From Rubrobacteraceae bacterium (GTDB taxonomy: Bacteria > Actinomycetota > Rubrobacteria > Rubrobacterales > Rubrobacteraceae), in contig JACCSM010000395.1 of the NCBI GenBank assembly GCA_013698525.1, positions 1 to 13,413 on the forward strand: a DNA stretch of 13,413 nt, read 5' to 3'. The position numbers were made by a program, and so were the translations under genes. Positions 2 through 13,413 of the stretch are shown one piece after another. How positions within the stretch are numbered: position 1 is the first letter of the stretch; each line of letters begins with the position of its first letter. Under the pieces are notes generated by a model that saw nothing but the letters and a program-made list of their open reading frames with translations, was not told the DNA's origin and did not search any database.

Positions 2-427
2 CCGGCCGGGGCGCTTCTGGGACCGCTAATCCTCGGAGTCGCCGTGGAGGAGCTCGGTGTAGTGCACCTCACATGGCCCCCAGGCGTGCCGCAGGCAGCC
101 TACCTCGTTCTCGGCCTGTGGGTGGGACTGCTCTTCGACGCGGCCTCCGTAAAGAGGGCGGGGCGGCTGTTTCCGGTCGTGCTCGCGTCCGCCGTTGGGC
201 TCGTACTCGCGTGCGCCGCACTGGGATGGGCGCTCGCTGCGCTCACCGGCGTCGACGGGATGACAGCCTACCTGGCGACCACGCCAGGGGGGATAGACTC
301 GGTGGCGATCGTAGCCCTTGGTAGCGGAGCCGACGCGCCGCTGGTATTGGCGGTGCAGATGCTGCGGCTCCTGGCCGTGGTCTTCGCCGGCTCGCTCCTC
401 GGAAGGTGGTTGTCAGCCTCCCGGTGA
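2..427 (+). CDS. AbrB-family membrane protein, C-terminal part (5' end outside window)
   Basis: This is the end of an integral membrane protein of the AbrB family (COG3180; the 'AbrB duplication' membrane family, unrelated to the Bacillus AbrB regulator). The reading frame is open from the window edge, so the gene starts upstream. The GTG at 44 is an internal codon, because the preceding residues PAGALLGPLILG already match the family. Hydrophobic segments are visible around AAYLVLGLWVGLLF, VVLASAVGLVLACAALGWAL and VLAVQMLRLLAVVFAGSLL. The motif TPGGIDSVAIVALGSGAD before the last membrane helix is a family signature. Transport of a small substrate has been proposed for some members, but no substrate can be read here. 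The gene converges on the phosphopantetheinyl transferase gene and overlaps its 3' end by 15 bp. No functional link to that cassette is apparent. Confidence 0.8.
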   Translation, partial: PAGALLGPLILGVAVEELGVVHLTWPPGVPQAAYLVLGLWVGLLFDAASVKRAGRLFPVVLASAVGLVLACAALGWALAALTGVDGMTAYLATTPGGIDSVAIVALGSGADAPLVLAVQMLRLLAVVFAGSLLGRWLSASR

Positions 428-1168
428 AGGAGGCCCGCGGCGGACGAGTTCGTCGCAACAAAACCCGGTCCTGTACTGCCAGCATGATAGCCGAAAGCCA
501 TTTCCTTCAACGGCCAGGGCGGCCACGTAGCCGGGGTCTGGGGCCAGTTCCTGCGAGGTCCATTTCGTTGGTTCGAGCGGATTCCCCCTGGTGTCCAGCA
601 GCATCGCGAGCCCTTTGCCCTCTGCCTTCGCGAAGGCCTCTCTCCGCGTCCAACAGGCGAAGAACGCTTCCTCGCGGAGACCATTGCGTAGCGAGTGGAG
701 CGTGGCGATCTCCCTGGGTGAGAACCAGCTCGCCGCGATCTCCTCCAGACCGAGATCGGCCCGCACGCGCTCGATGTCCACGCCGACGTCTCTGTCACGG
801 GCGAAAGCGAGGAGTATCAAACCGTGCGAGTGGGACGTGCTAAAGCGAATTCCGAAGTCGCCGGCAAGGTGAGGTTTCCCGTACGCATTGTAGCCGAAGC
901 CAAGACTGCCGGGATGCCTGCGCAGGTAACACCCCAAGAGCGCTCGCAGTACCCCTCGAGAGACGACGAACCGCTCCCTGTCACCATCGAAGAGGAAATC
1001 GTCGGCCTTCTGTCGTTCGTCGCCTGCCAAGAAGCTCCATAAGACGTCCCTGCGAGTGTAAGCTGACCCCACCACTACGCGCCACACGTGGACTTCGTCT
1101 CCGTCCAGCGCCAGCACGGTCGGTGGTGGCCTCCAGGGCTGGGTACTCAATAGCAAGGGTAGTTCCAC
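413..1168 (-). CDS. Sfp-type 4'-phosphopantetheinyl transferase
   Basis: This 251-residue protein is predicted to move phosphopantetheine from CoA onto the serine of carrier domains. The obvious partner is the ACP of the neighbouring PKS. Visible signatures are FSTSHS (109-114), VGVDIE (128-133, with Mg-binding Asp131 and Glu133) and the WTRREAFAKAEGKGL block (from 173, with Glu177 and Lys181). The WxxREA form replaces the usual WxxKEA. Length is slightly above the Sfp norm of about 220-240. The start is GTG at 1168. It is the only start codon after the in-frame stop upstream, but it has no clear Shine-Dalgarno, so a shorter form from an internal TTG or GTG is possible. It lies 68 bp after the thioester reductase stop and is probably co-transcribed with it. 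It is cytoplasmic. The family call is firm; the exact start is not. Confidence 0.9.
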   Translation of the reverse strand: MELPLLLSTQPWRPPPTVLALDGDEVHVWRVVVGSAYTRRDVLWSFLAGDERQKADDFLFDGDRERFVVSRGVLRALLGCYLRRHPGSLGFGYNAYGKPHLAGDFGIRFSTSHSHGLILLAFARDRDVGVDIERVRADLGLEEIAASWFSPREIATLHSLRNGLREEAFFACWTRREAFAKAEGKGLAMLLDTRGNPLEPTKWTSQELAPDPGYVAALAVEGNGFRLSCWQYRTGFCCDELVRRGPPSPGG

Positions 1169-1236
1169 TCGTCGGCCAGGAGTATAGCCTTCATGACCTC
1201 AACGGCTGCGTCGACCAAGCGGGGCCCCTGAGGTTC

Positions 1237-2544
1237 TCAGCCGCCGGTGGGGGAGTCCAAGAAGCCGCTCCTGACGAGGTGCACGAGGTAGTTCTCCATG
1301 AGCTCTCCATCTACCTGCGGGCACGAGATCTCTGTACCCGAGAGCGCCTCCGTGGTGTTGCGGCAGTCGAACTCGGGCATCTTGCCGACCAGCGCCTGCC
1401 CGTCCGCCGCTGCGCTCATGGAGAGCAGGGGCGCCATGGAGTACAGGGCGTCCTGCCGCAAGCCCTTCGCGGGGTTGATCAGGTCCGCCCGCCACTTGTC
1501 GTAAGTGACACGCTCGAGCGGGTAGCCGAACGTCTCGATCCAGGCCACCAGGTCGTTCACGCTTACGGGGTGGGGGTGCGCCAGGTGGAAACGCTTCCCG
1601 AGCGACTCGTCTCGCAACGACAGGCGGACGATCGCGCGGCTCACGTAGTCGACCGGTACCATATTCAACTCCGTGTCTAATTTCGGAGCGGTACCGAGGC
1701 CGACCCAGGTCTTTATCATCTTGCACGTGAAGTCGTCCTGGTTCCAAGCCCCCGTCCGGCTGTCGCCCGTGATCAGGGACGGCCGGTAGACGCACACGGG
1801 TAGCCCTCTCGCACGCGCGATCTCCACCAACTTCTCGGCGACCCACTTGGTCTGAGTGTAGCCGTTGTAGAGGGATCCACCGTGAGTCAGGTCGTCGTTC
1901 TCCCTAAAGACCTCGATACCGGATCGGCCAACCAGAGGGAAGACCCCGAGGGTGGAGATGAAGTGCACGGGCTTCACCCCATCCCTGGTCGCCAGCCTCA
2001 ACACCTCCTGCGTCCCGAGAACGTTGGTCGGCTTGAGCGCGTTGTACGGGTAGACCCAGTTCACCGAGGCGCCACTGTGGTAGACGGCGTCGATCTCGCC
2101 AGCCAACTCCTCGAACCGCTCGGGCCCGAGCCCGAGGAGCGGCTCCGACAGATCCCCAACGACAGGGACGATCCTGGATGATAGCTCTTCGTCCCACAGC
2201 CCGTAAGCCTCGAGCGCCTTCCTGAGCTTCTTGCCGCCCTCTTCGGTGTTGGCTGCGCGCACCAGGCAGTAGATGTCCGTCCGCGTGTGCCTGAGTAGCT
2301 CGGAGAGTACGAATGAGCCGAGAAAGCCCGTCGCACCGGTCAGCAAGACACGTTCCGGCCGGGGCGGAGTCCCGTTGAATGCGGGTTGGATCTCGGGGTC
2401 GAGCACGGCTTCTGCCTCGAGGTCATCCACCTTGACGGCAATGTGGTCGAGCAGCTTGTCGATGGCTCCGGACTTCCTGCGCAGCGTTTGCACGAGGAGG
2501 GCACGCTTCTCTTGCGGCGAGAGGCCAGCGAGGCGGTCGTTCAT
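1237..2544 (-). CDS. Stand-alone thioester reductase (R domain) that releases the PKS product
   Basis: This 435-residue short-chain-dehydrogenase-type thioester reductase resembles the terminal R domains of NRPS/PKS and carboxylic acid reductases. It should reduce the ACP-bound acyl thioester with NAD(P)H to an aldehyde, or in two rounds to an alcohol. The nucleotide motif GATGFLG is at 70-76, the catalytic Thr is in HFISTLG (about 198), and the YxxxK pair is Tyr229/Lys233. Residues 1-26 (LSPQEKRALLVQTLRRK) look like an NRPS/PKS docking helix. Residues 40-55 (DLEAEAVLDPEI) are the usual entry to an R domain. There is no carrier domain of its own, unlike cyanobacterial HetM. The ATG overlaps the PKS stop as ATGA, so translation is probably coupled. 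The PKS has no thioesterase, so this enzyme is the likely off-loading step. The released product (aldehyde or alcohol) is inferred. Confidence 0.9.
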   Translation of the reverse strand: MNDRLAGLSPQEKRALLVQTLRRKSGAIDKLLDHIAVKVDDLEAEAVLDPEIQPAFNGTPPRPERVLLTGATGFLGSFVLSELLRHTRTDIYCLVRAANTEEGGKKLRKALEAYGLWDEELSSRIVPVVGDLSEPLLGLGPERFEELAGEIDAVYHSGASVNWVYPYNALKPTNVLGTQEVLRLATRDGVKPVHFISTLGVFPLVGRSGIEVFRENDDLTHGGSLYNGYTQTKWVAEKLVEIARARGLPVCVYRPSLITGDSRTGAWNQDDFTCKMIKTWVGLGTAPKLDTELNMVPVDYVSRAIVRLSLRDESLGKRFHLAHPHPVSVNDLVAWIETFGYPLERVTYDKWRADLINPAKGLRQDALYSMAPLLSMSAAADGQALVGKMPEFDCRNTTEALSGTEISCPQVDGELMENYLVHLVRSGFLDSPTGG

Positions 2545-3662
2545 CCTTCGGCCTTCTCTTCTTCCTTCACCAAATCGCGCAATAGGGCGTCGACTTCCTC
2601 GTCCGTCAGTCCTTCCACCTGCGCCTCGAGACCATCCTCGGCCTCTTCGGGGGCTTCGGCCGCCGGCGCGTCCAACCCTTCGAGCAGCTGAGTCGCCAGC
2701 TGGGAGAGGCTCGGCCCCTGGAGCAACGCCGTCACCGGCAAGGAGGTCTCGAGGTCAGCTTCCACCCGGTTCTTCAGTTCGACGGCCATCAAGGAGTCGA
2801 TCCCCAACCTGTTGAGCGGCTCGTACGCGTCCCCCTTGGTCGGAGAGCACTTGAGCACCTGGGCTATCTGCTCGACGAGGAACCTCTCCACCAAACCCCG
2901 ACGCTCCTCGGGCTCGGCGGCCAAAATATCCTTCCTTACGGAGCTATCCTTCTTGGCCGGGCCTTCCCCAGCGAGTACCTCTTCCGAGAGCCTGGAGAGC
3001 ACCGGAGGCGTGTAGGAGCCGAGTATCTTGCCCCAGTCCATGGCGACGCCCATGCATTGAACGAGGTCTCGCTCGAGCATCCGCTCCATGAGCAGCACCC
3101 CCTGCTCCGGGGTGAAAGGCATGATGCCCTGTCGCGTCAGGTGCTCGACCCTGTCGGAGCGCGTCGCCAAGCCCACCTCGGTCCACGCGCCCCAGTTGAT
3201 CGCCAGGGCCGGCATCCCGAGGGCCCGCCGGTGGTGGGCCAGGGCGTCCAGGAACGCGTTCGCCGCCACGTAATTACCCTGCCCCGGGGAGCCGAGCACC
3301 GAGGCCGCCGAGGAGAAGAGCACGAAAAAGTCCAGATCGTCTTCCAGCGTCAGCCGGTGCAGGTTCCAGGCCCCGTTCACTTTGGGCGCCATGACCGTCG
3401 CGAAGCGTTCCTCGTCGAGCTGCATGAGGACCCCGTCGTCCAGGATCCCCGCGGCGTGGACCACGCCGCGCAACGGCGGCATGGAGTGTCGGATCTCCTC
3501 GATCACGCCGGCCACCTGACGTTCATCGGAGACATCAGCCTTCGCGACGACCACATCTACACCGTCGGCCCTCATCTTTGCTACAGCTTGCGTGGCCGCC
3601 TCGGAAGCGGCGCCGCTCCGACCTGTCAGGAGCAGGTGCCGCGCCCCTGCTCGACCAGCCAC
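2541..3662 (-). CDS. PKS fragment 3: ketoreductase remainder and acyl carrier protein
   Basis: This frame of 373 codons has a nominal GTG at 3662, which is not a natural start because it lies inside the KR fold. It resumes with ARHLLLTGRSG, directly continuing the TGGAGGLG of the previous piece. KR residues include the LDD motif at 74-76 (typical of B-type stereochemistry), Lys94, the FSS serine pair at 117-118, Tyr131 and Asn135, so the active site is complete. The ACP occupies about 255-330, with phosphopantetheine Ser290 in LGIDSL. The tail (331-373) is Ala/Glu-rich and ends in LTDEEVDALLRDLVKEEEK, which resembles C-terminal docking segments that hand a chain to the next protein. Its stop TGA overlaps the ATG of the thioester reductase. 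No thioesterase follows the ACP. Confidence 0.9.
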   Translation of the reverse strand: MAGRAGARHLLLTGRSGAASEAATQAVAKMRADGVDVVVAKADVSDERQVAGVIEEIRHSMPPLRGVVHAAGILDDGVLMQLDEERFATVMAPKVNGAWNLHRLTLEDDLDFFVLFSSAASVLGSPGQGNYVAANAFLDALAHHRRALGMPALAINWGAWTEVGLATRSDRVEHLTRQGIMPFTPEQGVLLMERMLERDLVQCMGVAMDWGKILGSYTPPVLSRLSEEVLAGEGPAKKDSSVRKDILAAEPEERRGLVERFLVEQIAQVLKCSPTKGDAYEPLNRLGIDSLMAVELKNRVEADLETSLPVTALLQGPSLSQLATQLLEGLDAPAAEAPEEAEDGLEAQVEGLTDEEVDALLRDLVKEEEKAEG

Positions 3663-6600
3663 TCGGCAGTGGAGAGGCCGAGGCCGCCGGCACCGCCGGT
3701 TACGAGGTAGGTGCCGTCCGGGCTGATGGCAGGGCGCTTGGTGGATGGGACGACCGGCACCTCATCCTCTTCCAGCGACACCACGACCTTGCCGATGTGC
3801 TTGGCCTGCGCCATGTAGCGGAAGGCATCCACGGCTCGAGATATCGGGAAGGTCTCGAAGGGCAGGGTTTCGAGCGAGCCTTCCTCGAAGAACTGTAAGG
3901 CCTCGCGCAGTATGGCGTTGCAGAGGTCTGGCCGCTTCAGCAGATGCTCAGAGAGGTCTATGGCGAAGAACGAGATGTTACTCCTGAGCAGCCAAAGGTC
4001 CAGCCGCGTGTGTTGCAAGAAGTCGACCTTGCCGATCTCGAGGAAGCGCCCTCCTGGCCGGAGCGTCGACAGGCTCTTGGGGATGAACTCCCCCGCCAGG
4101 GAGTTCAACACTACATCTACGCCCTCGCCGCCCGTCAGCTCCATCACCTCGTCTGCGAAATGGACGGACCTCGAGTCCATAACGTTGTGGATTCCCAGAG
4201 ACCTCAAAAATTCCCGTTTCTCAGGGCTACCCGCCGTGGCGAAGATTTCAGCGCCTTCCCGCTGGGCGATCCGTACCGCAGCCAGCCCGACTCCTCCGGC
4301 AGCCGCGTGGATCAGGACCCGCTCGCCCTCCTCGAGCCTACCCAGGCGGTTCAAGGCGTAATGCGCAGTGAAAAAGGCGATCGGCAGCGTCGCTGCCTCT
4401 TCGAAGCTCAAGTGGGCAGGCTTGGGCATCACGAAAGAGGAGTCAGCCGTAACGAAGGAACCCAGGCATCCAGGGGCTAAGGCGATCACGCTGTCCCCTA
4501 CCTCCAGGCTCTCGACGCCTGCCCCGACCGCCACGATCTCCCCCACACACTCGAACCCGACGTCCAGAGAATCCTTGTACAGTGGAGGGATGAGGTCCAT
4601 CGCGATCAGGACGTCCCTGAAATTCAGGCCGACCGCACGAACCTGGATCTCTACCTCTCCAGGTTCAGGCTCCCTGCGGTCGGTCTCCCGCAGCGTCATC
4701 TCGTCCAGAATGCCTGGCTTCGTCACCTCCAACCGGAACGGCTCGTCCGTGGACACCGTGGTCCGCCTCTCTTCAACGGCTTCGGGCGAGCACCGCACCA
4801 CCCTGGGCACATAACGCTCGCCGCCGCGCAGCGCGATCTGGTCTTCCCCGTCTTCGATCCAGAGCTCCCGGAAGAGCGACTGGACCTCCTCCGATAAGCC
4901 CAGGTCCACCTTGGTGCAGGCGAACTCAGGGTGTTCCAGAGATATGACCTTTCCCAGGCCCCACAGCGGTGCCTGGTCGACGGACACGGGTTCGTCCCCC
5001 ACGGGCTGGGTCCCGCGCGTCACCAGCCAGAGCCGGGGCGCGACGTCCAACCTCGTCAAAGCCTGCGTCAGGTGCAGCACGCCGGTGCACCCCAGCGCCC
5101 GTGCTTCTTCTAAGGACTCGATGAGGGCATCGGGAGGCGGACTTGATTCGAGGCCCCACAGGTACGTGACGCCTCTTAGGGGCAACGAGTCAGCCTCCGT
5201 GAGGTCGGCGAGCAGGCGCCGGAAATGTTCGGGATCGGCAGGGTCGAGCCGATAGCACCCCGGTCCCTCTTCCCTGTACTCATCCCCAGGGGAGACCGAG
5301 ACGCAGGCTTCGCCACGCTCTTCCAGGAATCTCTGGAGTGCCTGCCCGACCCCGCCTGCGTCGGCGAAGATAAGCCAGCTCGCGCGCTGGGCGGCAGGTG
5401 AGGGGGCAGGGGCTTTGTCCTGCTCAGGGAGCTCCTTCGGCTCCCACCGCACCTCGTACAGCCAGTCGTCGAGGTCTTTCTGCTCGTTCTCACGCCGGGC
5501 ATCGCGTTCGAGGCGCTGGAGGCGAAGTCCCGAGGCTTCCAACAGAACCTGCCCGCTCTCGTCGAGCAGGAACACGTCGCCCTCGAGATAATTGGCGTCC
5601 GCCGGCGCGTCCGTCTTCATGAGGGCGTGAGCCCACAGCTCAGCGTCAGGGAGGTCGTTGAGGTGGAGCCTGGCCAAGCTTACCGGGAGGTAGAGATCGT
5701 CCCCTTCCGCGCTCCCCTTTGGCAGGGCGGCGGCCAGTACCTGGAAGCATGCGTCCAGCAGAGCGGGGTGAATCTTGTGGCCGTTTTTCTGCGTGGCGAC
5801 CGCCTCCGTGAGCTGTAGTTGGCCCAAGGCTTCGCCGTCCCGGCGCCAGAGCCGCTCCACGCCCCGGAAGCTCGGCCCGTACTCGAGCCCCCGCTCTCGC
5901 AACCCCTCGTACAGATCAGTGCCGGCGATGGCCTCCTGGCACCGCACCATGAGCTCCTCAGGAGATTCGTGATGCCGCAGTGCCTGGTCGGCATGCCCGT
6001 TGGCCTGAGAGTAGTGGTGGCGGATCCTACCCGCCGCGTGCGGCGTCCACGACGCGTCGGGCTGCGTGGCATTCTCTTCCATACTGAAGAACCGGAAGGA
6101 AGTCTCTCCGACACTCCGAGCGGAGAGGACGAGCTGCACAGCCCTGGCTCCCTGCTCGGGAAGGAAGAGCGCTTTCTCGAAGCTCATGTCCTCCAGCGTG
6201 TGATCCCCGGGTCCCAGCGCTTCCTCAGCCGCCGAGAGGACCATCCCGGCGAATCCCGCGGCCGGCAGCACGGCGAGCCCTTGGACGCGGTGATCGCCCA
6301 GATAGCCGAACGTTTCTACACCAAGGTCCGTTTCCCAGTAGTGCGTTCCTGGATCGGCAGCGGATCGTAGGTGCATACCCAAGAGGCGCCTTCTGCCGTT
6401 CAGACGTGCCCTGCCGTCTCCGTTTCGTACGGGATCCTGGTCATGCAGCCAGAAGCGCTCGCCCTGCCAGCGGTAGGAAGGCAGCCGGGCGCACCGGCTC
6501 TTGGAGCGGTAGAGTTTGTCCCAGTCAACCGGGTGCCCCAACGTGTAGAGTGCCCCAAACGAGCCAAGAGGCGCCGCCCGCCCTTCGTTCTCCCGCAGGG

Positions 6601-7600
6601 AGGGCAAAGTGATCCCTTCACGGCCGTGGTGGCGCAGGCATTGCTCGACTGAGCTCAGGAGGATGGGGTGGGGGCTGACCTCCACGAAGACGTCGTGGCC
6701 GTCTTCGAGCAGCCGCTCCACGGCCTTCGACAAGAGCACCGGCTGCCTCAGATTCCGCGCCCAGTAAGCGGCGTCGAGCGTAAGGCCGTCCTCGATCTCA
6801 CCCGTCACCGTCGAGTAGAGGGTCACAGAGGAGGAGTGGGAGCGTATGCCTTCCAGAGCCTCTAACAGGTCGGGACGAAGTGGGTCCACCTGCGGGCTGT
6901 GAGAGGCGTAATCTACCCGGATCCGGCGGACGAAAACGTCTTGGCGCTCGAGTTCGGCCAGGACTTCTTCGAGCGCCGCCACCTCCCCCGAGAGCACGGT
7001 GGAGTAGGGGCTGCTGTTGACTGCGACCGAGATCCGATCTTCGCGGCCTGATATGGCGCGCTCCGCCTCCTCGAGCGGGAGCTGCACAACAGCCATGCTG
7101 CCATGCCCGCTGGTCCTTTTCACCAGTTGGCTCCGGCGGCAGATCACGCGCGCCGCGTCTTCCAGGGTCAAGGCTCCAGCCACGTGGGCCGCCGCCACCT
7201 CGCCCAAGCTCTGGCCAACCACCGCGTCAGGCTCGACGCCCCATGAGCGCCACAGGGCCGCCAGGGACACCTGCACCGCAAAGATGGCGGGCTGGACGAC
7301 ATCAACTTCGGACAATCGGGAATGTGCTTCGTCAGCGGCCAGCTCCTCCAAAATGGACCAGCCCGTGTACTTCCGGATCGCCAGGTCGCAGATCTCCATC
7401 GCCTCCCGGAACGCGGGTTCCTGCTCCAAGAGCATCCGTCCCATGCCGACCCACTGCGATCCCTGCCCCGAGAATACAAAGACGAGCTTGCGCCGTTGGT
7501 CGCCGAGCTTGCGGCCTGACGACATGTCAGGGCGGGCCCCGCCTTCGAGGAATGCCTCTAAATGCTCAGCGAGCTGCTCACGGGAGAGCTGCCCACCATG
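3626..7600 (-). CDS. PKS fragment 2: acyltransferase, dehydratase, structural KR, enoylreductase, start of KR
   Basis: The coding part runs about 1,324 codons from the KS-AT linker. Numbering starts at 7600. The AT occupies about 36-340, with GQGSQ, active serine 131 in GQSLGE and YASH at 231-234. DH occupies about 400-700, with HxxxGxxxxP from His437 to Pro446 and DxxxQ from Asp616 to Gln620. A KR-like structural region spans about 740-940. ER occupies about 950-1275, with GLNFRDV at 991 and the NADPH motif HAAAGGVG at 1098. The KR opens with TGGAGGLG (1301-1308), then the frame is lost after VEQG and ends at TGA (3626). The same frame stays open up to 8074, but that part lies opposite KS codons and is not homologous. 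The first in-frame ATG after the KS is at 7525 and has no convincing Shine-Dalgarno. The YASH motif usually goes with methylmalonyl-CoA, but GQSLGE is less diagnostic. Confidence 0.9.
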   Translation of the reverse strand, partial: HGGQLSREQLAEHLEAFLEGGARPDMSSGRKLGDQRRKLVFVFSGQGSQWVGMGRMLLEQEPAFREAMEICDLAIRKYTGWSILEELAADEAHSRLSEVDVVQPAIFAVQVSLAALWRSWGVEPDAVVGQSLGEVAAAHVAGALTLEDAARVICRRSQLVKRTSGHGSMAVVQLPLEEAERAISGREDRISVAVNSSPYSTVLSGEVAALEEVLAELERQDVFVRRIRVDYASHSPQVDPLRPDLLEALEGIRSHSSSVTLYSTVTGEIEDGLTLDAAYWARNLRQPVLLSKAVERLLEDGHDVFVEVSPHPILLSSVEQCLRHHGREGITLPSLRENEGRAAPLGSFGALYTLGHPVDWDKLYRSKSRCARLPSYRWQGERFWLHDQDPVRNGDGRARLNGRRRLLGMHLRSAADPGTHYWETDLGVETFGYLGDHRVQGLAVLPAAGFAGMVLSAAEEALGPGDHTLEDMSFEKALFLPEQGARAVQLVLSARSVGETSFRFFSMEENATQPDASWTPHAAGRIRHHYSQANGHADQALRHHESPEELMVRCQEAIAGTDLYEGLRERGLEYGPSFRGVERLWRRDGEALGQLQLTEAVATQKNGHKIHPALLDACFQVLAAALPKGSAEGDDLYLPVSLARLHLNDLPDAELWAHALMKTDAPADANYLEGDVFLLDESGQVLLEASGLRLQRLERDARRENEQKDLDDWLYEVRWEPKELPEQDKAPAPSPAAQRASWLIFADAGGVGQALQRFLEERGEACVSVSPGDEYREEGPGCYRLDPADPEHFRRLLADLTEADSLPLRGVTYLWGLESSPPPDALIESLEEARALGCTGVLHLTQALTRLDVAPRLWLVTRGTQPVGDEPVSVDQAPLWGLGKVISLEHPEFACTKVDLGLSEEVQSLFRELWIEDGEDQIALRGGERYVPRVVRCSPEAVEERRTTVSTDEPFRLEVTKPGILDEMTLRETDRREPEPGEVEIQVRAVGLNFRDVLIAMDLIPPLYKDSLDVGFECVGEIVAVGAGVESLEVGDSVIALAPGCLGSFVTADSSFVMPKPAHLSFEEAATLPIAFFTAHYALNRLGRLEEGERVLIHAAAGGVGLAAVRIAQREGAEIFATAGSPEKREFLRSLGIHNVMDSRSVHFADEVMELTGGEGVDVVLNSLAGEFIPKSLSTLRPGGRFLEIGKVDFLQHTRLDLWLLRSNISFFAIDLSEHLLKRPDLCNAILREALQFFEEGSLETLPFETFPISRAVDAFRYMAQAKHIGKVVVSLEEDEVPVVPSTKRPAISPDGTYLVTGGAGGLGLSTAEWLVEQGRGTCS
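3640..3662 (-). other. Frameshift site 2 in the PKS (KR Rossmann fold)
   Basis: The upstream frame reads VEQG then meaningless residues to a stop. The downstream frame reads ARHLLLTGRSG. Adding one G to the GGGG run on the minus strand (CCCC at 3644-3647) gives a seamless VEQGARHLLLTGRSG, the expected KR sequence. A one-base loss in a homopolymer is a common sequencing error and also a common natural mutation. Confidence 0.85.
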
Positions 7601-9093
7601 GCTAGCCGGTGGGCGTGGTGGGTTCTCCTGGCGCCGGCGGTGTAGCAAATGTCTTGCAAGGAGGAGAGAGCACCTTCCTCGGTGCGCAGGAACCCTATGT
7701 AGGCGCGCGCCGTGTCCTCGAGGACCTCGGGACTGTGGGCAGACAGGGGCAACAGGTGGGCTGTGGCGACCACTTCTGCTTCCGCTGGCGGGGCCTCGGG
7801 GGCCTCCTCTAGAACGACGTGGGCATTGGTGCCTGAGATCCCGAAGGAGCTCACCCCGGCGCGGGCGGGTCCTGGGGAGGGCGGCCAGGGGCTGAGCTCC
7901 CGCTGCACCGTAAGGGGGAGGTTCTGCCAGGGGATGTTGGGGTTGGGTGCCCGCAGGTGCAGGCTTGGCGGTATAGTCTTGTGTTTGAGGGCGAGGGCGA
8001 CTTTGATCAGGCCGGCCACCCCGGCCGCCCCCTCGGTGTGCCCGATGTTCGTCTTCACGGAGCCGACGACGCAAGGATGGTCATCAGGCCGCCCCTCTCC
8101 GATCACCGCCCCAAGGGCTTGCATCTCGACGGGGTCGCCCACCGACGTGCCCGTGCCGTGGGCCTCCACATACTGGACCTCACCCGGCGAGACACCAGCG
8201 CTCCGGTAGGCCTCCTCGAAGACTGCCTCCTGGCCCGGGCGGCTCGGTGTCATCAGCAGGCCACCGGAGTCGCCATCGTTGTTTACCGCACTGCCCCGGA
8301 TAACGGCGTAGATGGGATCCCCATCGGCGAGGGCCGAGGACAGCCGCTTGAGCACGACCATCCCGGCGCCCTCGCTACGCACGAAGCCGTCGGCGCGCGA
8401 GTCGCCGAACTTGCAGCGCCCGTCGGGCGCGAGCATCTGCGCCGTAGAGAAGGCTATGTAGGGTTCGGGGCTGAAGATCAGGTTCACCCCCCCGGCGAGG
8501 GCCACGGCGCTCTCCCCGGAATACAGGCTCTGGCACGCGAGGTGGACCGCGACGAGCGACGTGGAGCATGCGGTGTCCACCGTCATGCTGGGCCCCTGCA
8601 GACCGAGCGCGTAGGAGAGGCGTCCGGAGAGTACGCTCAAGGCGTTCCCCCCGGCGAAGTAGATGTCTATGTCGGCGGAGTCCTCGAGCAGGTTTCCGTA
8701 GTCGCTGTTGCACGTGCCCGCGAACACCCCGATCCGGCCGACGTCCAGCTTCTCAGGCACCAGCCCGGCGTCCTCGATGGCCTCCCAAGCCACCTCTAGC
8801 AACACCCGCTGCTGGGGATCCATGGCGGCGGCTTCGCGGGATGAGATTCCGAAGAAGTAGGGGTCGAACTCGTCAACCCCTTCCAGAAAGCCGCCCCACT
8901 TGGTGTTGAGCTTGCCTGGTATTCCTGGCTTGGGATCGTACACATCGCCAACGTCGAATCGCTCGGAAGGAATCTCCGTGATAGCGTCCACTCCTTCGCG
9001 CAGAAGGTGCCAGAAAGACTCGGGACCCTTCGCGCTCGGGAACCGGCAGCCAATACCGATTATGGCGATTGGCTCCCTCTCCGTCTTCCCCAT
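7558..9093 (-). CDS. PKS fragment 1: ketosynthase (KS) and start of the KS-AT linker
   Basis: This is a 511-codon frame beginning MGKTEREPIAIIGIGCRFP, the standard opening of a type I KS, with no N-terminal docking coiled coil. The catalytic triad is complete: Cys176 in DTACSTS, His312 in EAHGTGTS and His352 in NIGHTEG. The KS ends near residue 430 (GTNAHVVLEEAP). The KS-AT linker follows with the characteristic DICYTAGARRTHHAHRLAMVG. About 11 residues after that the frame drifts into non-homologous codons and stops at TAG (7558), while the next frame continues the expected SREQLAEHLEAFL. The ATG at 9093 has a near-ideal Shine-Dalgarno (GGGAGG, six bases upstream). Known KS chemistry is decarboxylative condensation of the chain with an AT-loaded extender. 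As a lone protein it would lack an AT and ACP. Confidence 0.92.
   Translation of the reverse strand: MGKTEREPIAIIGIGCRFPSAKGPESFWHLLREGVDAITEIPSERFDVGDVYDPKPGIPGKLNTKWGGFLEGVDEFDPYFFGISSREAAAMDPQQRVLLEVAWEAIEDAGLVPEKLDVGRIGVFAGTCNSDYGNLLEDSADIDIYFAGGNALSVLSGRLSYALGLQGPSMTVDTACSTSLVAVHLACQSLYSGESAVALAGGVNLIFSPEPYIAFSTAQMLAPDGRCKFGDSRADGFVRSEGAGMVVLKRLSSALADGDPIYAVIRGSAVNNDGDSGGLLMTPSRPGQEAVFEEAYRSAGVSPGEVQYVEAHGTGTSVGDPVEMQALGAVIGEGRPDDHPCVVGSVKTNIGHTEGAAGVAGLIKVALALKHKTIPPSLHLRAPNPNIPWQNLPLTVQRELSPWPPSPGPARAGVSSFGISGTNAHVVLEEAPEAPPAEAEVVATAHLLPLSAHSPEVLEDTARAYIGFLRTEEGALSSLQDICYTAGARRTHHAHRLAMVGSSPVSSSLSI
7583..7597 (-). other. Frameshift site 1 in the PKS (KS-AT linker)
   Basis: The KS frame reads HRLAMVGSS and then diverges. 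The AT frame supplies SREQLAEHLEAFL. On the minus strand the spot reads GGCAGCTCTCCCGTGAG. Removing one CT of the CTCT pair (AGAG at 7585-7588 on the plus strand) gives GSSREQLAEHL, which is what the family predicts. A one-base loss nearby would also restore the frame. Confidence 0.8.
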
Positions 9094-9646: not shown

Positions 9647-10249
9647 CTACGAGGAGGCTCTGAGCCTGCTCTCGAAGCGCTCTATCAAGGTCTTGCGGTT
9701 CTGGTTTGCCCTCTCGTAGTCCCTGAGTCGCCGGACCTGCTCGTCGGTGAGAGCGTCTACTCTCTCTGAGATCTCCTCTACGTTCATCTCGTCGTAGCCG
9801 GCTATCGGGAAGGTGGCAGTCTCAGCGGTCCGCTGGGCGCCCAAGGTCGCGGCGTCCATGGTGCGGGCTGTGGCGTCGGTCACGGCGCCTGTCGCCGCTC
9901 CCACCACGCCTGCCGCGGTCCGCCCGCTCGCCATCGCCCCCGCCCGGTACTGGGAGAAGGAGGCGTCCAGGAAGTCCATGTAGGCCTCGACGGATTCCTG
10001 TGCCAACGCCCGTCCGGCCTCCTGCTGCCTGTCTGCCTGCTCGGAGAGTCGCTGGGCACCCGAGCGGCCGCCTTCGGCCTGCTCCCTGAGGTTGTTGGCC
10101 ACCAGCTCGGAGAACTCCTGGGCCAGACGTTGCTGGCGCTCCCCCGACTCGGCGGCCTGCCCGTAGACGACCCTGTATGACTCGGCGAGGGTCTCGGCAA
10201 AGCGCCGGGCTGCCTCGTTGACGTCGCGGGCCTTTCCTCGGTCCACCAT
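9647..10249 (-). CDS. Phasin-like amphipathic helical protein with a conserved C-terminal domain
   Basis: This 200-residue protein has no signal peptide. Residues 1-105 are long, charged, Gln/Glu/Ala-rich helices resembling phasin or apolipoprotein-like surface-binding proteins. Residues 105-145 are Ala/Gly/Thr-rich with short hydrophobic stretches (AAGVVGAATGAVTDATA). Residues 148-188 (FPIAGYDEMNVEEI, then RLRDYERANQNRKTLIERF) match a short domain common in actinobacterial proteins, typically IxGYDxLxVxEI followed by an arm ending in NRKT (I recall it as DUF8129). Phasins coat storage granules or lipid bodies, so a lipid or polymer surface role is possible here but unproven. The ATG has a good AAGGAG eight bases upstream. 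The gene lies 125 bp after glpD, and a hairpin occupies the gap. Confidence 0.7.
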   Translation of the reverse strand: MVDRGKARDVNEAARRFAETLAESYRVVYGQAAESGERQQRLAQEFSELVANNLREQAEGGRSGAQRLSEQADRQQEAGRALAQESVEAYMDFLDASFSQYRAGAMASGRTAAGVVGAATGAVTDATARTMDAATLGAQRTAETATFPIAGYDEMNVEEISERVDALTDEQVRRLRDYERANQNRKTLIERFESRLRASS

Positions 10250-10374: not shown

Positions 10375-12102
10375 CTACGCTCGCGACGATTCGCGGTCCC
10401 TGAACTCTTTGGGGGTGTAGCGTTCGATCCACTCGCGGTACTCCCGCACTTCGCGTTCGGCGCGCTCATCTTCCCATCCGAGATGTTTGACAGCGACCTG
10501 GGCGGCGGCGTCGGCGACGTCAAGGCCGACTCTGGGACCGTAACCAACCATCGTGCGCCTCAAGAGTACGTCGGAGAGCGTCTGGGCCATCTCCTCGCGG
10601 AGAGCCCAGATCACCTCGGCCCCGATCAACGCCGTTTCGACGCTTACGATGGAGGAGAGGGGCGTAAGGAGCTCTGGGTCGTCTTCGCCCACTTTCAGGA
10701 CCTCGGCGGCCCTGACGCCGTAGAGCTTGAGGAGCCTGCCTGAGAGTACCTCGGGTATGGTGCTCGCGGATCTGAAGCCGGCTGCGAACGCCTCGAAGTC
10801 CGAGGTCTCGCTCCCAGGCAATGGGACCTTGCGAGAGGTGCTCTTGGGCGCCTTCCGATCCAGCTTCTCGAAGACGGCGTCGACCGTCTGGCGGCTAAGG
10901 TTCAGATAGGTGGTCAACTTGCCACCGATGATAGAGAGGAGCCCCCCGACCTGCGGCAGCTCGGCGCTTTGGCTCTTTACCTTGCCGCCCGCCGCGGAAC
11001 CTCCCTTTGCATGGTCGAAGACGACGTGGCTACGGGTGACGCCGCCCGTCTCACCTTCGGGGTTATAGGGTAGCGGCCTGACTCCTGCGTAGGTAAACAG
11101 CACGTCCTCGCGGGAGAGCTTCGCGGCGGGGATGACGTAGTTGGTCTCGTCGAGAAGGTATTGGATCTCGTCCTCGCTCGCCGAGACGTGGTCGAGGTTC
11201 CCTTCGTAGCGTAGGTCGGTCGTGCCGATCAGGTACCTTCCGTTCCACGGCACGATAAAGTACGGCCTGCCGTCTTTGCGCGCCTCGACGTAGAGGGCCT
11301 CGCCCTCAGGGGCGCCGGGGAAAGGATCCACGATGAGATGGCTGCCCTTGGTGCCACCCATAAAGCGACCGACGTTCTCGTCGTTGCCTGGTCGGTGAAG
11401 ATCAGCGAGAATCTCATCCACCCAGGGACCCGCGACGTTCACCGTAACTGGGGCACGGGCCGCGTATCTCTCACCCTCGAAGACGTCGGTGAACTCAACG
11501 CCCCTTACCTCGCCGTTCTCCATGATCAGGCGCTCTACGTTCGCGTAGGTGATTATGGTCGCGCCGTTGTCGCGGGCGGAGATGGCGTTCTCTACGGCGA
11601 CCCTTTCTGCGTACTCCACCTGCGCGTCGTAGTAGAAGGCAGCCGCTTTCAAGCCTTCCGGGTTGAGACCGGGTTCGCGTTCCTCGACCTTCTTGCGACT
11701 GAGCATCTTGTGCCTTTCCATGCTCCTGTCGTAGGAGAGGGCGTCATAGACGTTCATGCCGAGCCGGATCATGAGCGGCCCGCGTGAGCTCCTGTCGTAG
11801 ATGGGAACCAGGAAGCCGAGCGGCTTGACCAGATGCTGCGCGACGTGCAGTATGGCCTCTCTATCCCTCAAAGACTCTCTTACGAGCGCGAACTCGTAGT
11901 GCTCCAGGTAGCGTAAGCCACCGTGGATCAGACGCGTCGCCCACTGCGTCGTCCCGCTGGAGATGTCGCCCTTGTCGAGTAGCAATACCCGCAAGCCCCG
12001 CATCGCGGCGTCGCGTGCTATGCCTGTGCCGTTTATGCCGGCTCCGACCACGATAAGATCGAAGACCTGCCTCTCGATGTCTTGCGGTATGCGTGATGAC
12101 AT
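10375..12102 (-). CDS. glpD: FAD-dependent glycerol-3-phosphate dehydrogenase
   Basis: This 575-residue membrane-associated flavoenzyme oxidises sn-glycerol 3-phosphate to dihydroxyacetone phosphate and passes electrons to quinone (EC 1.1.5.3). The FAD-binding GAGINGTGIARDA is at 20-32, followed by the family block SSGTTQWATRLIHGGLRYLE. The catalytic-core motifs NVAGPWVD, GGTKGSHLIVD, GTTDLRYEGN and IGGKLTTYLNLS are present. A helical C-terminal domain (DAO C-terminal type) follows from about 430, with ALIGAEVIWALREEMAQTLSDVLLRRT. Length is normal for the family (about 500-580). The ATG follows the upstream gpsA-like stop after only two bases, and its AAAGGA lies inside that gene, so the two are co-translated. 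With a GpsA-type enzyme in the same operon, the cell could run G3P and DHAP both ways. No glycerol kinase or GlpF is seen in the window. Confidence 0.95.
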   Translation of the reverse strand: MSSRIPQDIERQVFDLIVVGAGINGTGIARDAAMRGLRVLLLDKGDISSGTTQWATRLIHGGLRYLEHYEFALVRESLRDREAILHVAQHLVKPLGFLVPIYDRSSRGPLMIRLGMNVYDALSYDRSMERHKMLSRKKVEEREPGLNPEGLKAAAFYYDAQVEYAERVAVENAISARDNGATIITYANVERLIMENGEVRGVEFTDVFEGERYAARAPVTVNVAGPWVDEILADLHRPGNDENVGRFMGGTKGSHLIVDPFPGAPEGEALYVEARKDGRPYFIVPWNGRYLIGTTDLRYEGNLDHVSASEDEIQYLLDETNYVIPAAKLSREDVLFTYAGVRPLPYNPEGETGGVTRSHVVFDHAKGGSAAGGKVKSQSAELPQVGGLLSIIGGKLTTYLNLSRQTVDAVFEKLDRKAPKSTSRKVPLPGSETSDFEAFAAGFRSASTIPEVLSGRLLKLYGVRAAEVLKVGEDDPELLTPLSSIVSVETALIGAEVIWALREEMAQTLSDVLLRRTMVGYGPRVGLDVADAAAQVAVKHLGWEDERAEREVREYREWIERYTPKEFRDRESSRA

Positions 12103-12104
12103 CG

Positions 12105-13184
12105 CTATCCTTTCCCTGCTTTGCTATCCTCTTCGCCCCCGAAAAAAGTGTGCCAGGGCATGTTCAAAGGCTCGTCCGCCCCGACCACGGCGTGCAGGTG
12201 GCGCATCAGCGGGAAGTCTTCTGCTCCGATGATACCGCGCTCGGTCAGCTTCGGAAGCGCGCCACCGATCACCTCGATGGCCGCCGCCCCTTCGAGCGTC
12301 ACCCCCGGCATGCGCTCGCGCGCCTCCGAGAACCGCAGCCCCGAGCCGATGAGCCGGCCCACCTTCACGTTACGCCCTCCCATGCTGGTGACGAACATGT
12401 CCCCGACCCCGGCCAACCCGTATGGCGTCTCGGACTCGCCGCCAAGCAGTTCCATGAACCGCCCAAACTCCCGCGTCGCCTGGCCGAAGAGCGCGGCCCC
12501 GTAGTCGTAGTTGCGGTACTGCGATTCAGACTCGTTCTCACGGTCGAGTATGCCTTCCATGAAACCGGCCCCGAGAGCGTAGCAGTTCTTGGCCGCCGCG
12601 CATACCTCGACGCCGACGAAGTCGGTCGAGGTCCACACATGATAGTTGGGGGTACGGAAGAGGCCCGACATCTCCTCCAACACGCCAGCGTCGCGTCCCG
12701 CAAAGACCACGCACGTATCCCGCCGCACGGCGACCTCACCGGCGATGGAAGGCCCTGCGATGGCCGACCAGGACACCTGCTCCCGCAGGCCCTCGGGCAC
12801 CTCCCCGGCGAGCACCTCGGGGAGGATGCGCAGGTCGCCGCCCTCCGTGGCCTCCATCCCCTTGGCGATGGAGAGCACATGCATACCAGGCTCGAGCAGC
12901 GAAGAGAGTTGTTCGCCGGCCCAGCGCACCCCGAACGAGTTGACGCCGCTCATGACGACATCGGCGCCATCGAACGCCTCCTCGGCCTCCTCGAGCTGGA
13001 AGGCGCTGGCCGCCTGGGGGACCTCGAGGTCGAGGCCAGGATGCACACCCCTCTCCTTGATGCTGTCGATGATCTCGCGGTCGAGGTGAGTGCCGATCAG
13101 ACGCACATCGTGGCCGTTGTCCGAGAGCGGAAAGGCGAGGGCCGTGGCCATTATGCCAGAGCCGAGAACACTTACGGTCGTCAT
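12105..13184 (-). CDS. gpsA: NAD(P)-dependent glycerol-3-phosphate dehydrogenase, GpsA family (divergent)
   Basis: This 359-residue cytoplasmic enzyme is predicted to reduce DHAP to sn-glycerol 3-phosphate (EC 1.1.1.94), the usual entry to bacterial glycerolipids. The N-terminal Rossmann motif is GSGIMA (8-13), with Ala where the last Gly usually sits. Other family marks are SIAKGME (105-111), GPSIAGEVA (144-152), the catalytic-lysine block AAAKNCYALGAGF (Lys199) and GLAGVGDMFVTSMGGRNVKVG (256-276). A longer frame runs to 13274, but MTTVSVLGSG at 13184 is the true start. It has a strong AGGAGGG six bases upstream, begins exactly at the fold, and its ATG overlaps the upstream stop as ATGA. Length is slightly over the usual 330-340. 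Several motifs deviate from housekeeping GpsA, so a paralogue with a special substrate or partner is possible. Confidence 0.85.
   Translation of the reverse strand: MTTVSVLGSGIMATALAFPLSDNGHDVRLIGTHLDREIIDSIKERGVHPGLDLEVPQAASAFQLEEAEEAFDGADVVMSGVNSFGVRWAGEQLSSLLEPGMHVLSIAKGMEATEGGDLRILPEVLAGEVPEGLREQVSWSAIAGPSIAGEVAVRRDTCVVFAGRDAGVLEEMSGLFRTPNYHVWTSTDFVGVEVCAAAKNCYALGAGFMEGILDRENESESQYRNYDYGAALFGQATREFGRFMELLGGESETPYGLAGVGDMFVTSMGGRNVKVGRLIGSGLRFSEARERMPGVTLEGAAAIEVIGGALPKLTERGIIGAEDFPLMRHLHAVVGADEPLNMPWHTFFGGEEDSKAGKG
12108..12113 (-). promoter_or_regulatory. Shine-Dalgarno of glpD inside the end of the upstream gene
   Basis: AAAGGA on the minus strand lies five bases before the glpD ATG and within the last codons of the gpsA-like gene. 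This supports translational coupling. Confidence 0.6.
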
Positions 13185-13413
13185 TCTTCTCCCTCCTGCA
13201 GGGACATCCGGCCACCTGTGTGACGAGTCGCATGGCCCCAGAAGCCCTCCGGTGCGAACAGTTCGTCGACGCACTCATCGAGGATACCGGCCTCGAAGGT
13301 CAGGTCGAGGACTGTATAGCGCTTGCGGATCGTCCGCGCCCTCGAGTACGTCGCCCCGAAGTCCTCCCAGCCGAGCCCGATCTCGACGGGACTGGTGGGA
13401 CAACCGGCGGCCC
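13181..13413 (-). CDS. sn-glycerol-1-phosphate dehydrogenase (AraM/EgsA type), C-terminal end only
   Basis: The last 77 codons of a gene enter from the right edge and end in a TGA (13181-13183) that overlaps the gpsA-like ATG. The residues CPTSPVEIGL, then RARTIRKRYTVLDLTFEAG and ILDECVDELF, match the C-terminal region of bacterial AraM and archaeal-type G1P dehydrogenases. That region typically has a Pro-Thr-x-Pro-x-x-IGL stretch, a helix and an IRxRYTVLDL motif. These enzymes reduce DHAP to sn-glycerol 1-phosphate (EC 1.1.1.261), the mirror-image backbone used in archaeal lipids and, in Bacillus, for prenylglyceryl phosphate. The metal ligands and NAD site lie outside the window and cannot be checked. 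The call rests on this tail alone. Confidence 0.7.
   Translation of the reverse strand, partial: AAGCPTSPVEIGLGWEDFGATYSRARTIRKRYTVLDLTFEAGILDECVDELFAPEGFWGHATRHTGGRMSLQEGEE
13191..13197 (-). promoter_or_regulatory. Shine-Dalgarno that fixes the gpsA-like start
   Basis: AGGAGGG on the minus strand, six bases before the ATG at 13184, lies within the last codons of the upstream gene. It rules out the longer frame starting at 13274. Confidence 0.8.

What the first reader, a model, noticed from the sequence alone, without database searches (positions are those of the whole stretch)
413..9093. A compact PKS - thioester reductase - phosphopantetheinyl transferase cassette predicted to make a saturated long-chain aldehyde or alcohol
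Seen: one module with KS, AT, DH, ER, KR and ACP, then a separate thioester reductase coupled by ATGA, then a Sfp-type transferase; no thioesterase. Known: cyanobacterial heterocyst glycolipid synthesis uses a PKS (HglE), a reductase (HetM/HglB) and a transferase (HetI), and R domains release aldehydes or alcohols. Inferred: an actinobacterial analogue that gives fully reduced alkyl chains or fatty alcohols for a membrane or storage lipid. I know of no described product for this gene arrangement.
Basis: partly seen in the sequence, partly recalled or inferred. Interest (0 to 1): 0.75.

Follow-up and report, generated by a model that had tools for sequence, protein, structure and literature searches.

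The report
Decaying remnant of a glycolipid cluster
In this uncultured actinobacterium, lipid-making genes that look like a neat three-gene cassette are most likely the damaged leftover of a larger cluster that, in relatives, probably builds and exports a sulfated, methyl-branched sugar lipid.

Summary
But the PKS lies in three reading frames, broken at about 7585 and 3645, while a relative (P0251, 91-97% identical by piece) is intact. The compact order is secondary: between TR and transferase lies a 15-codon stub (1174-1218), 14/15 identical to the start of a relative's glycosyltransferase. The same-genus genome G006 holds there a whole GT21-type glycosyltransferase, a sulfotransferase and an MMPL exporter. 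The window's transferase also lacks a 16-residue stretch present in relatives. Two Geodermatophilaceae genomes carry PKS-TR-GT-transferase-sulfotransferase. The AT has the YASH signature of methylmalonyl-using ATs; the Geodermatophilaceae enzymes lack it but carry a C-methyltransferase, so both routes point to methyl branches. The G006 PKS resembles mycocerosic acid synthase. The heterocyst analogy holds for TR and transferase, not for the PKS. Whether the PKS breaks are sequencing errors or recent decay I cannot tell. Ten literature searches showed no description of the parent cluster; its predicted product is a sulfated, methyl-branched alkyl glycoside.

The parts
7558..9093 (-). PKS piece 1: ketosynthase and KS-AT linker; homology to intact relatives runs to 7585
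   Evidence: Pfam PF00109 E 1.6e-98; 97% to P0251 residues 1-503
3626..7585 (-). PKS piece 2: AT (6581-7483), DH, ER, start of KR; the mechanical ORF runs on to 8074 but homology starts at 7585
   Evidence: Pfam; 91% to P0251 residues 503-1813
2541..3662 (-). PKS piece 3: rest of KR and ACP; homology starts at 3647
   Evidence: Pfam PF08659, PF00550; 94% to P0251 residues 1813-2180
7580..7590 (-). frame break 1, between KS linker and AT
3640..3650 (-). frame break 2, inside KR
1237..2544 (-). thioester reductase, 435 aa, intact; ATGA overlap with the PKS end
   Evidence: PF07993 E 5.8e-74; NCBIfam TIGR01746 374 bits over cut-off 213; MxaA reductase 4u7w 375 bits
1174..1218 (-). stub of the deleted glycosyltransferase: 15 codons, LVDAAVEVMKAILLA
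   Evidence: 14/15 identical to the N-terminus of P0124; 0 of 200 base shuffles reach the score; position
413..1168 (-). Sfp/HetI-like phosphopantetheinyl transferase with a 48-nt in-frame deletion near 607-608
   Evidence: PF01648 E 2e-14; NCBIfam HetI 170 bits, cut-off 370; deletion
2..427 (+). AbrB-family protein cut by the contig end; not part of the cassette
   Evidence: PF05145 E 2e-37
9647..10249 (-). 200-aa ORF of unknown family; not shown to belong
   Evidence: no Pfam or NCBIfam match
10375..12102 (-). glycerol-3-phosphate dehydrogenase GlpD-like; neighbour only
   Evidence: PF01266, PF16901; same pair in loci of other genomes
12105..13274 (-). NAD-dependent glycerol-3-phosphate dehydrogenase GpsA-like; neighbour only
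   Evidence: PF07479, PF01210

Best explanation
The window holds a decayed remnant of a larger lipid cluster. In the ancestral form (seen in G006 and, reordered and without a neighbouring MMPL relative, in Geodermatophilaceae) a single-module, mycocerosic-acid-synthase-like PKS, activated by the neighbouring transferase, extends a fatty acyl starter with methylmalonyl units and reduces each unit fully (KR, DH, ER). The stand-alone TR then releases the chain reductively as an aldehyde or alcohol. A GT21-type glycosyltransferase adds a sugar to the alcohol, a sulfotransferase sulfates the product, and in G006 an MMPL transporter exports it: a sulfated, methyl-branched alkyl glycoside. In the window's lineage a deletion of about 5 kb removed all but 15 codons of the glycosyltransferase, plus the sulfotransferase and MMPL genes; the transferase lost 16 residues and the PKS is broken in two places, so the cassette probably no longer works. 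Shown: gene content, breaks, stub, motifs, gene order in relatives. Inferred: substrate, iteration, chemistry, order of tailoring, the ancestral order itself, loss of function.
For: The GT stub at 1174-1218 is 14/15 identical to a relative's GT start; 0 of 200 shuffles reach score 62, best 36. G006 has PKS-TR-GT-ST-MMPL-PPTase on one strand with start/stop overlaps at four of five junctions. Contig-length matches put a TR 89% like the window's, a GT and a PKS on one 12,054-base contig. In the held ~80% of G000 the G006 GT finds no match and the G006 ST only a 28% one, E 3.8e-4. The transferase lacks a 16-residue stretch that the four others aligned have (15 residues of it in HetI). Three PKS frames against an intact relative. 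Two Geodermatophilaceae genomes hold PKS-TR-GT-PPTase-ST. Methylation: YASH at the AT signature site in window, G006 and M. neglectum; VPYH there in both Geodermatophilaceae PKSs, with methyltransferase domains by Pfam in L045 and a methyltransferase-like motif in L204. G006 PKS to MAS 1292 bits, colinear; GT to ceramide glucosyltransferase and HpnI; MMPL to MmpL3.
Against: TR is intact and 93% identical to P0038, and the PKS pieces are 91-97% identical to an intact protein with no codons lost at the breaks, so decay would be very recent, or the breaks are sequencing errors. The contig comes from a fragmented, 80%-complete MAG, so a misassembly could mimic the deletion. A tblastn search of the window with the G006 GT did not show the stub at E <= 1; it stands out only against GTs nearer to the window's lineage. 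The window AT alone matches macrolide PKS ATs slightly better (264 bits) than MAS (243 bits). No product is known for any member.
Confidence: 0.68

Rival explanations
1. The compact three-gene cassette works as such. The PKS breaks are sequencing errors, the transferase tolerates its deletion (or another one serves), and the end product is a free methyl-branched aldehyde or alcohol, or one glycosylated by an enzyme encoded elsewhere.
For: TR intact and conserved; PKS pieces still 91-97% identical to an intact protein, no codon lost at the breaks; GlpD matches its relatives over full length and GpsA is one open frame.
Against: GT stub left in place; four separate lesions in one cassette; conserved transferase stretch missing.
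Confidence: 0.18
2. Assembly artefact: the true chromosome still has the whole cluster, and the assembly collapsed or misjoined it.
For: 639-contig MAG; breaks and deletion all lie in one contig.
Against: The junction is clean (stub running straight into the transferase); GT ortholog not found and only a 28% ST match in the rest of the held genome, though about 20% of it is missing.
Confidence: 0.12
3. True heterocyst-glycolipid-type system: HglE-like PKS, HglB/HetM, HetI making a long-chain diol glycolipid.
For: TR 51% to HglB-like and transferase 42% to HetI of a Nostoc island; NCBIfam's best match for the transferase is HetI.
Against: KS only 31% to HglE; HetI score 170 against cut-off 370; in G006 the PKS is one MAS-like polypeptide with DH-ER-KR, and Pfam shows only KS-type domains on HglE of L065; TR lacks the N-terminal ACP of HglB.
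Confidence: 0.02

Closest known systems
Mycocerosic acid synthase (MAS) and Pks2-type iterative PKS of mycobacteria
   Same: Same domain order over full length: G006 PKS residues 41-2188 against MAS 6-2111, 1292 bits; the window's middle piece has Pks2 (sulfolipid-1) as best NCBIfam match, 793 bits (a piece, so the whole-protein cut-off of 2400 does not apply, and the full G006 PKS was not scanned); methylmalonyl-type AT signature; MMPL gene nearby in G006.
   Different: A thioester reductase gene follows directly and a GT21/sulfotransferase block stands beside it. That MAS/Pks2 products are passed on as acyl chains without reductive release is recalled, not tested.
Heterocyst glycolipid (hgl) island of Nostocales: HglE, HglB/HetM, HetI
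   Same: TR and transferase are true relatives (51% and 42%); a PKS-made chain, an ACP-TER protein and later glycosylation in the hgl pathway (PMC11804610, abstract and passages; PMC8064123, passages).
   Different: The PKS is not HglE-like; in the hgl island the ACP sits on HglB; GT, sulfotransferase and MMPL of the parent cluster have no counterpart that I saw there.
MxaA reductase domain (myxalamid synthase)
   Same: Best solved relative of the TR, 375 bits; NCBIfam thioester reductase above cut-off.
   Different: Stand-alone protein here, a domain of the PKS in MxaA (recalled).
Ceramide glucosyltransferase / HpnI (GT21)
   Same: G006 GT: 118 bits to ceramide glucosyltransferase structures, HpnI 212 bits.
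   Different: Below the HpnI cut-off of 310; sits in a PKS operon; only a 15-codon stub in the window.
Single-ORF PKS-TR of Mycobacterium neglectum (L047)
   Same: PKS 54% and TR 50% to G006; YASH AT.
   Different: PKS and TR fused in one 2627-aa ORF; no GT, ST or PPTase relatives at E <= 1e-5 in the 21-kb locus; a carbamoyltransferase gene upstream.

Membership tests
Heterocyst glycolipid (hgl) system | HglE-type (PfaA-like) PKS | tested here: not met
   KS 31% to HglE of L065; HglE of L065 scores PfaA first, the window KS scores PKS_plus_SDR, Pks13 and Pks2 first
Heterocyst glycolipid (hgl) system | HglB/HetM = ACP + thioester reductase | tested here: not met
   Reductase part 51% identical, but no ACP domain on the window TR; L065 protein has PF00550 at 16-80
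Heterocyst glycolipid (hgl) system | HetI equivalog transferase | tested here: not met
   170 bits, cut-off 370; L065 control 441 bits
MAS/Pks2-type iterative PKS | KS-AT-DH-ER-KR-ACP in one polypeptide | tested here: not met
   Met in G006 and one intact protein in P0251; in the window the same order is split over three frames
MAS/Pks2-type iterative PKS | methylmalonyl-type AT signature | tested here: met
   YASH and VDVVQ in the window; same YASH in EryA ATs; that YASH means methylmalonyl is recalled
MAS/Pks2-type iterative PKS | iterative use of one module | not testable with these tools
   single module only
Thioester reductase (R/TER) | NAD_binding_4 / TIGR01746 above cut-off, nucleotide motif and YxxxK | tested here: met
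   374 bits over cut-off 213; TGATGFLG and YTQTK present
Sfp-type phosphopantetheinyl transferase | complete ACPS domain | tested here: not met
   window profile match 2-85 of 111 with a 16-aa gap against relatives; G006 2-110. Above Pfam's cut-off all the same; activity not testable
Intact PKS-TR-GT-ST-MMPL-PPTase cluster | GT21, sulfotransferase and MMPL genes present | tested here: not met
   only a GT stub in the window; in G000 no GT match and a 28% ST match; MMPL not found in the window, genome not searched for it

The most novel reading that the evidence does not exclude
The parent cluster defines an undescribed class of bacterial envelope lipids: sulfated glycosides of PKS-made, multiply methyl-branched alcohols. 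It is spread thinly over Rubrobacteraceae, Geodermatophilaceae and perhaps Chloroflexota; its methyl branches are made by two independent routes (methylmalonyl-type AT, or another AT plus C-methyltransferase), and the window catches one lineage losing it.
Probability: 0.4. Interest if true: 0.65.

Novelty: new variant of a known kind. Interest (0 to 1): 0.42.

Why it matters
The window itself is a caution: a tidy three-gene unit can be the scar of a deletion, and a 15-codon stub tells which. The parent cluster joins mycobacterial-type methyl-branched PKS chemistry to heterocyst-type reductive release and to sulfated glycolipid tailoring in Rubrobacteraceae, a family known for resisting drying and radiation (recalled). 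If it makes what its genes predict, it would be a new lipid class, with a product predicted closely enough to look for by mass spectrometry. Finding a methylmalonyl-type AT in one branch and a C-methyltransferase in the other, in much the same gene company, would suggest that the methyl branch itself is under selection.

Tried and rejected
Frameshift error rate of G000: 40 of its 639 contigs (181,303 bases) were compared with 322 ORFs from 400 kb of the same-genus genome G007; only 5 matched pairs (1,912 aa) passed, with 0 frame changes. Too few to separate error from decay.

Contig-length fingerprints: I first read the absence of a GT of contig length 90,298 as a sign that the closest relative also lacks it, and wrote that in a note. 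I rejected this, because the protein database is clustered at 90% identity and a GT from that contig could hide behind another representative; the listing is also capped at 120. Only positive matches (12,054, 13,670 and 21,696, each with a TR, a GT and a PKS) are used, and even these rest on equal lengths, not on seen DNA.

A link to the GlpD-GpsA neighbours (ether lipids): not supported, since the pair stands together in L147, L148 and L155, which show no TR, KS or PPTase (three of the ten short loci examined; the other seven showed GlpD only; G006 had no GlpD match at E <= 1e-100).

ARAGORN's tRNA-Arg at 3588-3665 lies in KR coding sequence; Rfam lists nothing in the window at gathering score; taken as a false call.

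Literature: ten searches, all of open-licence PubMed Central papers only. I saw the listings of all ten, abstract and passages of PMC11804610, passages of PMC8064123 and of PMC11520301. No title or abstract start in those listings described this cluster; PMC11520301 mentions gene cluster families shared by Rubrobacteraceae MAGs (GCF_2046) and by Actinobacteriota and Chloroflexota MAGs (GCF_2089), but the passages seen do not give their genes, so a prior computational sighting is possible.

Full report
WHERE IT IS. The window is the whole contig C223 of a fragmented MAG (G000: 639 contigs, 2,975,727 bases, 79.8% complete). Its same-genus relative G006 is matched at 100% by contig CADCVF010000082.1 (58,273 bases, as G006:C82), 'uncultured Rubrobacteraceae bacterium isolate AVDCRST_MAG58' (L043), so the window is most likely Rubrobacteraceae.

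WHAT IS THERE. On the - strand, from upstream to downstream, lie a PKS (9093-2541), a thioester reductase (2544-1237, ATGA overlap) and a phosphopantetheinyl transferase (1168-413). Pfam finds KS, AT, DH, ER, KR and ACP. These domains sit in three reading frames. The KS frame is homologous down to 7585, the next frame from 7585 to 3644, the third from 3647. A close relative, P0251 (2180 aa, listed with a 90,298-base contig), is intact and matches the three pieces at 97, 91 and 94% with abutting ends. Intact copies therefore exist, and the window's copy is broken twice without loss of codons. I cannot tell recent decay from sequencing error: a survey of other G000 contigs gave only 5 usable gene pairs, with 0 frame changes.

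THE COMPACT ORDER IS SECONDARY. In G006 (L024) the order is PKS, TR, GT21-type glycosyltransferase, sulfotransferase, MMPL transporter, transferase, all on one strand. Start and stop codons overlap at PKS/TR, TR/GT, GT/ST and MMPL/PPTase; ST/MMPL has a short gap. In the window, TR and transferase are 68 bases apart. Within that gap, 1174-1218 reads LVDAAVEVMKAILLA, 14 of 15 residues identical to the N-terminus of the GT P0124. The stretch 1169-1250 was compared in three frames with the first 60 residues of 25 GTs (P0121-P0145 of the 120 listed): score 62, while 0 of 200 base shuffles reached it (best 36). A tblastn search with the more distant G006 GT did not list the stub. Searches of G000 with the G006 GT found nothing, and with the G006 sulfotransferase only a 28% match; about a fifth of the genome is not held. 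A metagenomic contig of 12,054 bases, recognised by its length only, carries a TR 89% identical to the window's, a GT and a PKS. The simplest account is a deletion of roughly 5 kb in the window's lineage. The transferase has a further 48-nt in-frame deletion in a stretch that the four other transferases aligned keep.

HOW THE PARENT CLUSTER LIKELY WORKS. The G006 PKS matches mycocerosic acid synthase over nearly its full length (1292 bits, residues 41-2188). The window AT alone matches macrolide PKS ATs best (264 bits) and MAS at 243 bits. Both ATs have YASH and VDVVQ or VDVIQ; YASH is shared with EryA ATs. That these mark methylmalonyl specificity is recalled. By a mechanical pattern, 44 of 54 PKS sequences examined (those of 1400-2700 aa among the 120 listed, plus window, Geodermatophilus and M. 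neglectum) show YASH; 4 showed no motif by the pattern and 6 showed others. The two Geodermatophilaceae enzymes have VPYH at the aligned place; L045 carries methyltransferase domains by Pfam and L204 the same methyltransferase-like motif. Either way a methyl-branched chain is expected. The TR's best solved relative is the MxaA reductase, which releases an alcohol (recalled). GT21 enzymes glycosylate lipid alcohols (recalled); the G006 GT resembles ceramide glucosyltransferase and HpnI. The sulfotransferase is Sulfotransfer_3, its solved relatives being proteins without a functional name; the transporter is MmpL3-like. Inference: sulfated methyl-branched alkyl glycoside, exported. Chain length, starter, sugar and sulfation site are unknown.

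SPREAD. A close TR occurs in 2 of 39 genomes of the family: the window's own and G006. A close KS (83%) is in 1 of 24 family genomes other than the window's own; all 24 have weaker KS matches. The G006 GT at E <= 1e-30 finds 1 of 396 genomes drawn from the phylum, G006 itself. In the family of Geodermatophilus sp. LHW52908, 3 of 112 genomes hold the sulfotransferase at E <= 1e-60; two of the three show PKS-TR-GT-PPTase-ST, the third contig ends inside the transferase gene. No MMPL relative lies in the 21-kb L045 locus at E <= 1e-5, and none within the L204 and L206 stretches at E <= 1e-8. Mycobacterium neglectum has PKS and TR in one ORF. Source names of distant PKS, TR and GT hits include Chloroflexota, Chloroflexia, Anaerolineae and Bipolaricaulia; their gene context was not seen.

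THE HETEROCYST ANALOGY. The locus L065 (Nostoc) is an hgl island by its HetI (441 bits, cut-off 370) and its ACP-TER protein. The window TR is 51% identical to that TER over 403 aa, the transferase 42% to HetI, the KS only 31% to HglE. In a tree of 42 TRs the window, G006 and metagenomic kin form a supported clade of six rows apart from the cyanobacterial rows; the Geodermatophilaceae TRs group with the metagenomic row P0107 (seven inner forks, deep ones among them, are open). So two of three genes are related to the heterocyst genes and the PKS is not.

VERDICT. The window's cassette is best read as a decaying remnant; the parent cluster is the item of interest.

Noticed in passing
G000:C544:111-1280 and, with it, 27 of 39 family genomes; L008 1-4182: A second protein ending in a thioester reductase (40-53% to the window TR) is widespread in the family; 24 of its 28 matches lie in open frames of more than 800 aa. 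L008, the only one scanned, is an AMP-binding - PP-binding - reductase (NRPS/CAR-like) protein of unknown product.
   Followed up: partly
L047:1126-11230: Mycobacterium neglectum has a carbamoyltransferase gene directly before a fused 2627-aa PKS-thioester reductase.
   Followed up: no
L024:3-671 and 1410-2819: Beside the G006 cluster lie an IS110-type transposase piece and an EryCIII/GT28-like glycosyltransferase, perhaps a second sugar transferase or a hint at mobility.
   Followed up: no
window 3588-3665: ARAGORN calls a tRNA-Arg (CCT) inside KR coding sequence, across frame break 2; Rfam lists no match. Probably a false call.
   Followed up: yes
window 9647-10249: 200-aa alanine-rich ORF without Pfam or NCBIfam match, between the cassette and GlpD.
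   Followed up: partly
L081: Gloeocapsopsis crepidinum has a TR relative with a sulfotransferase (32%) and a weak GT (20%) relative within about 6 kb downstream, possibly a cyanobacterial version.
   Followed up: no
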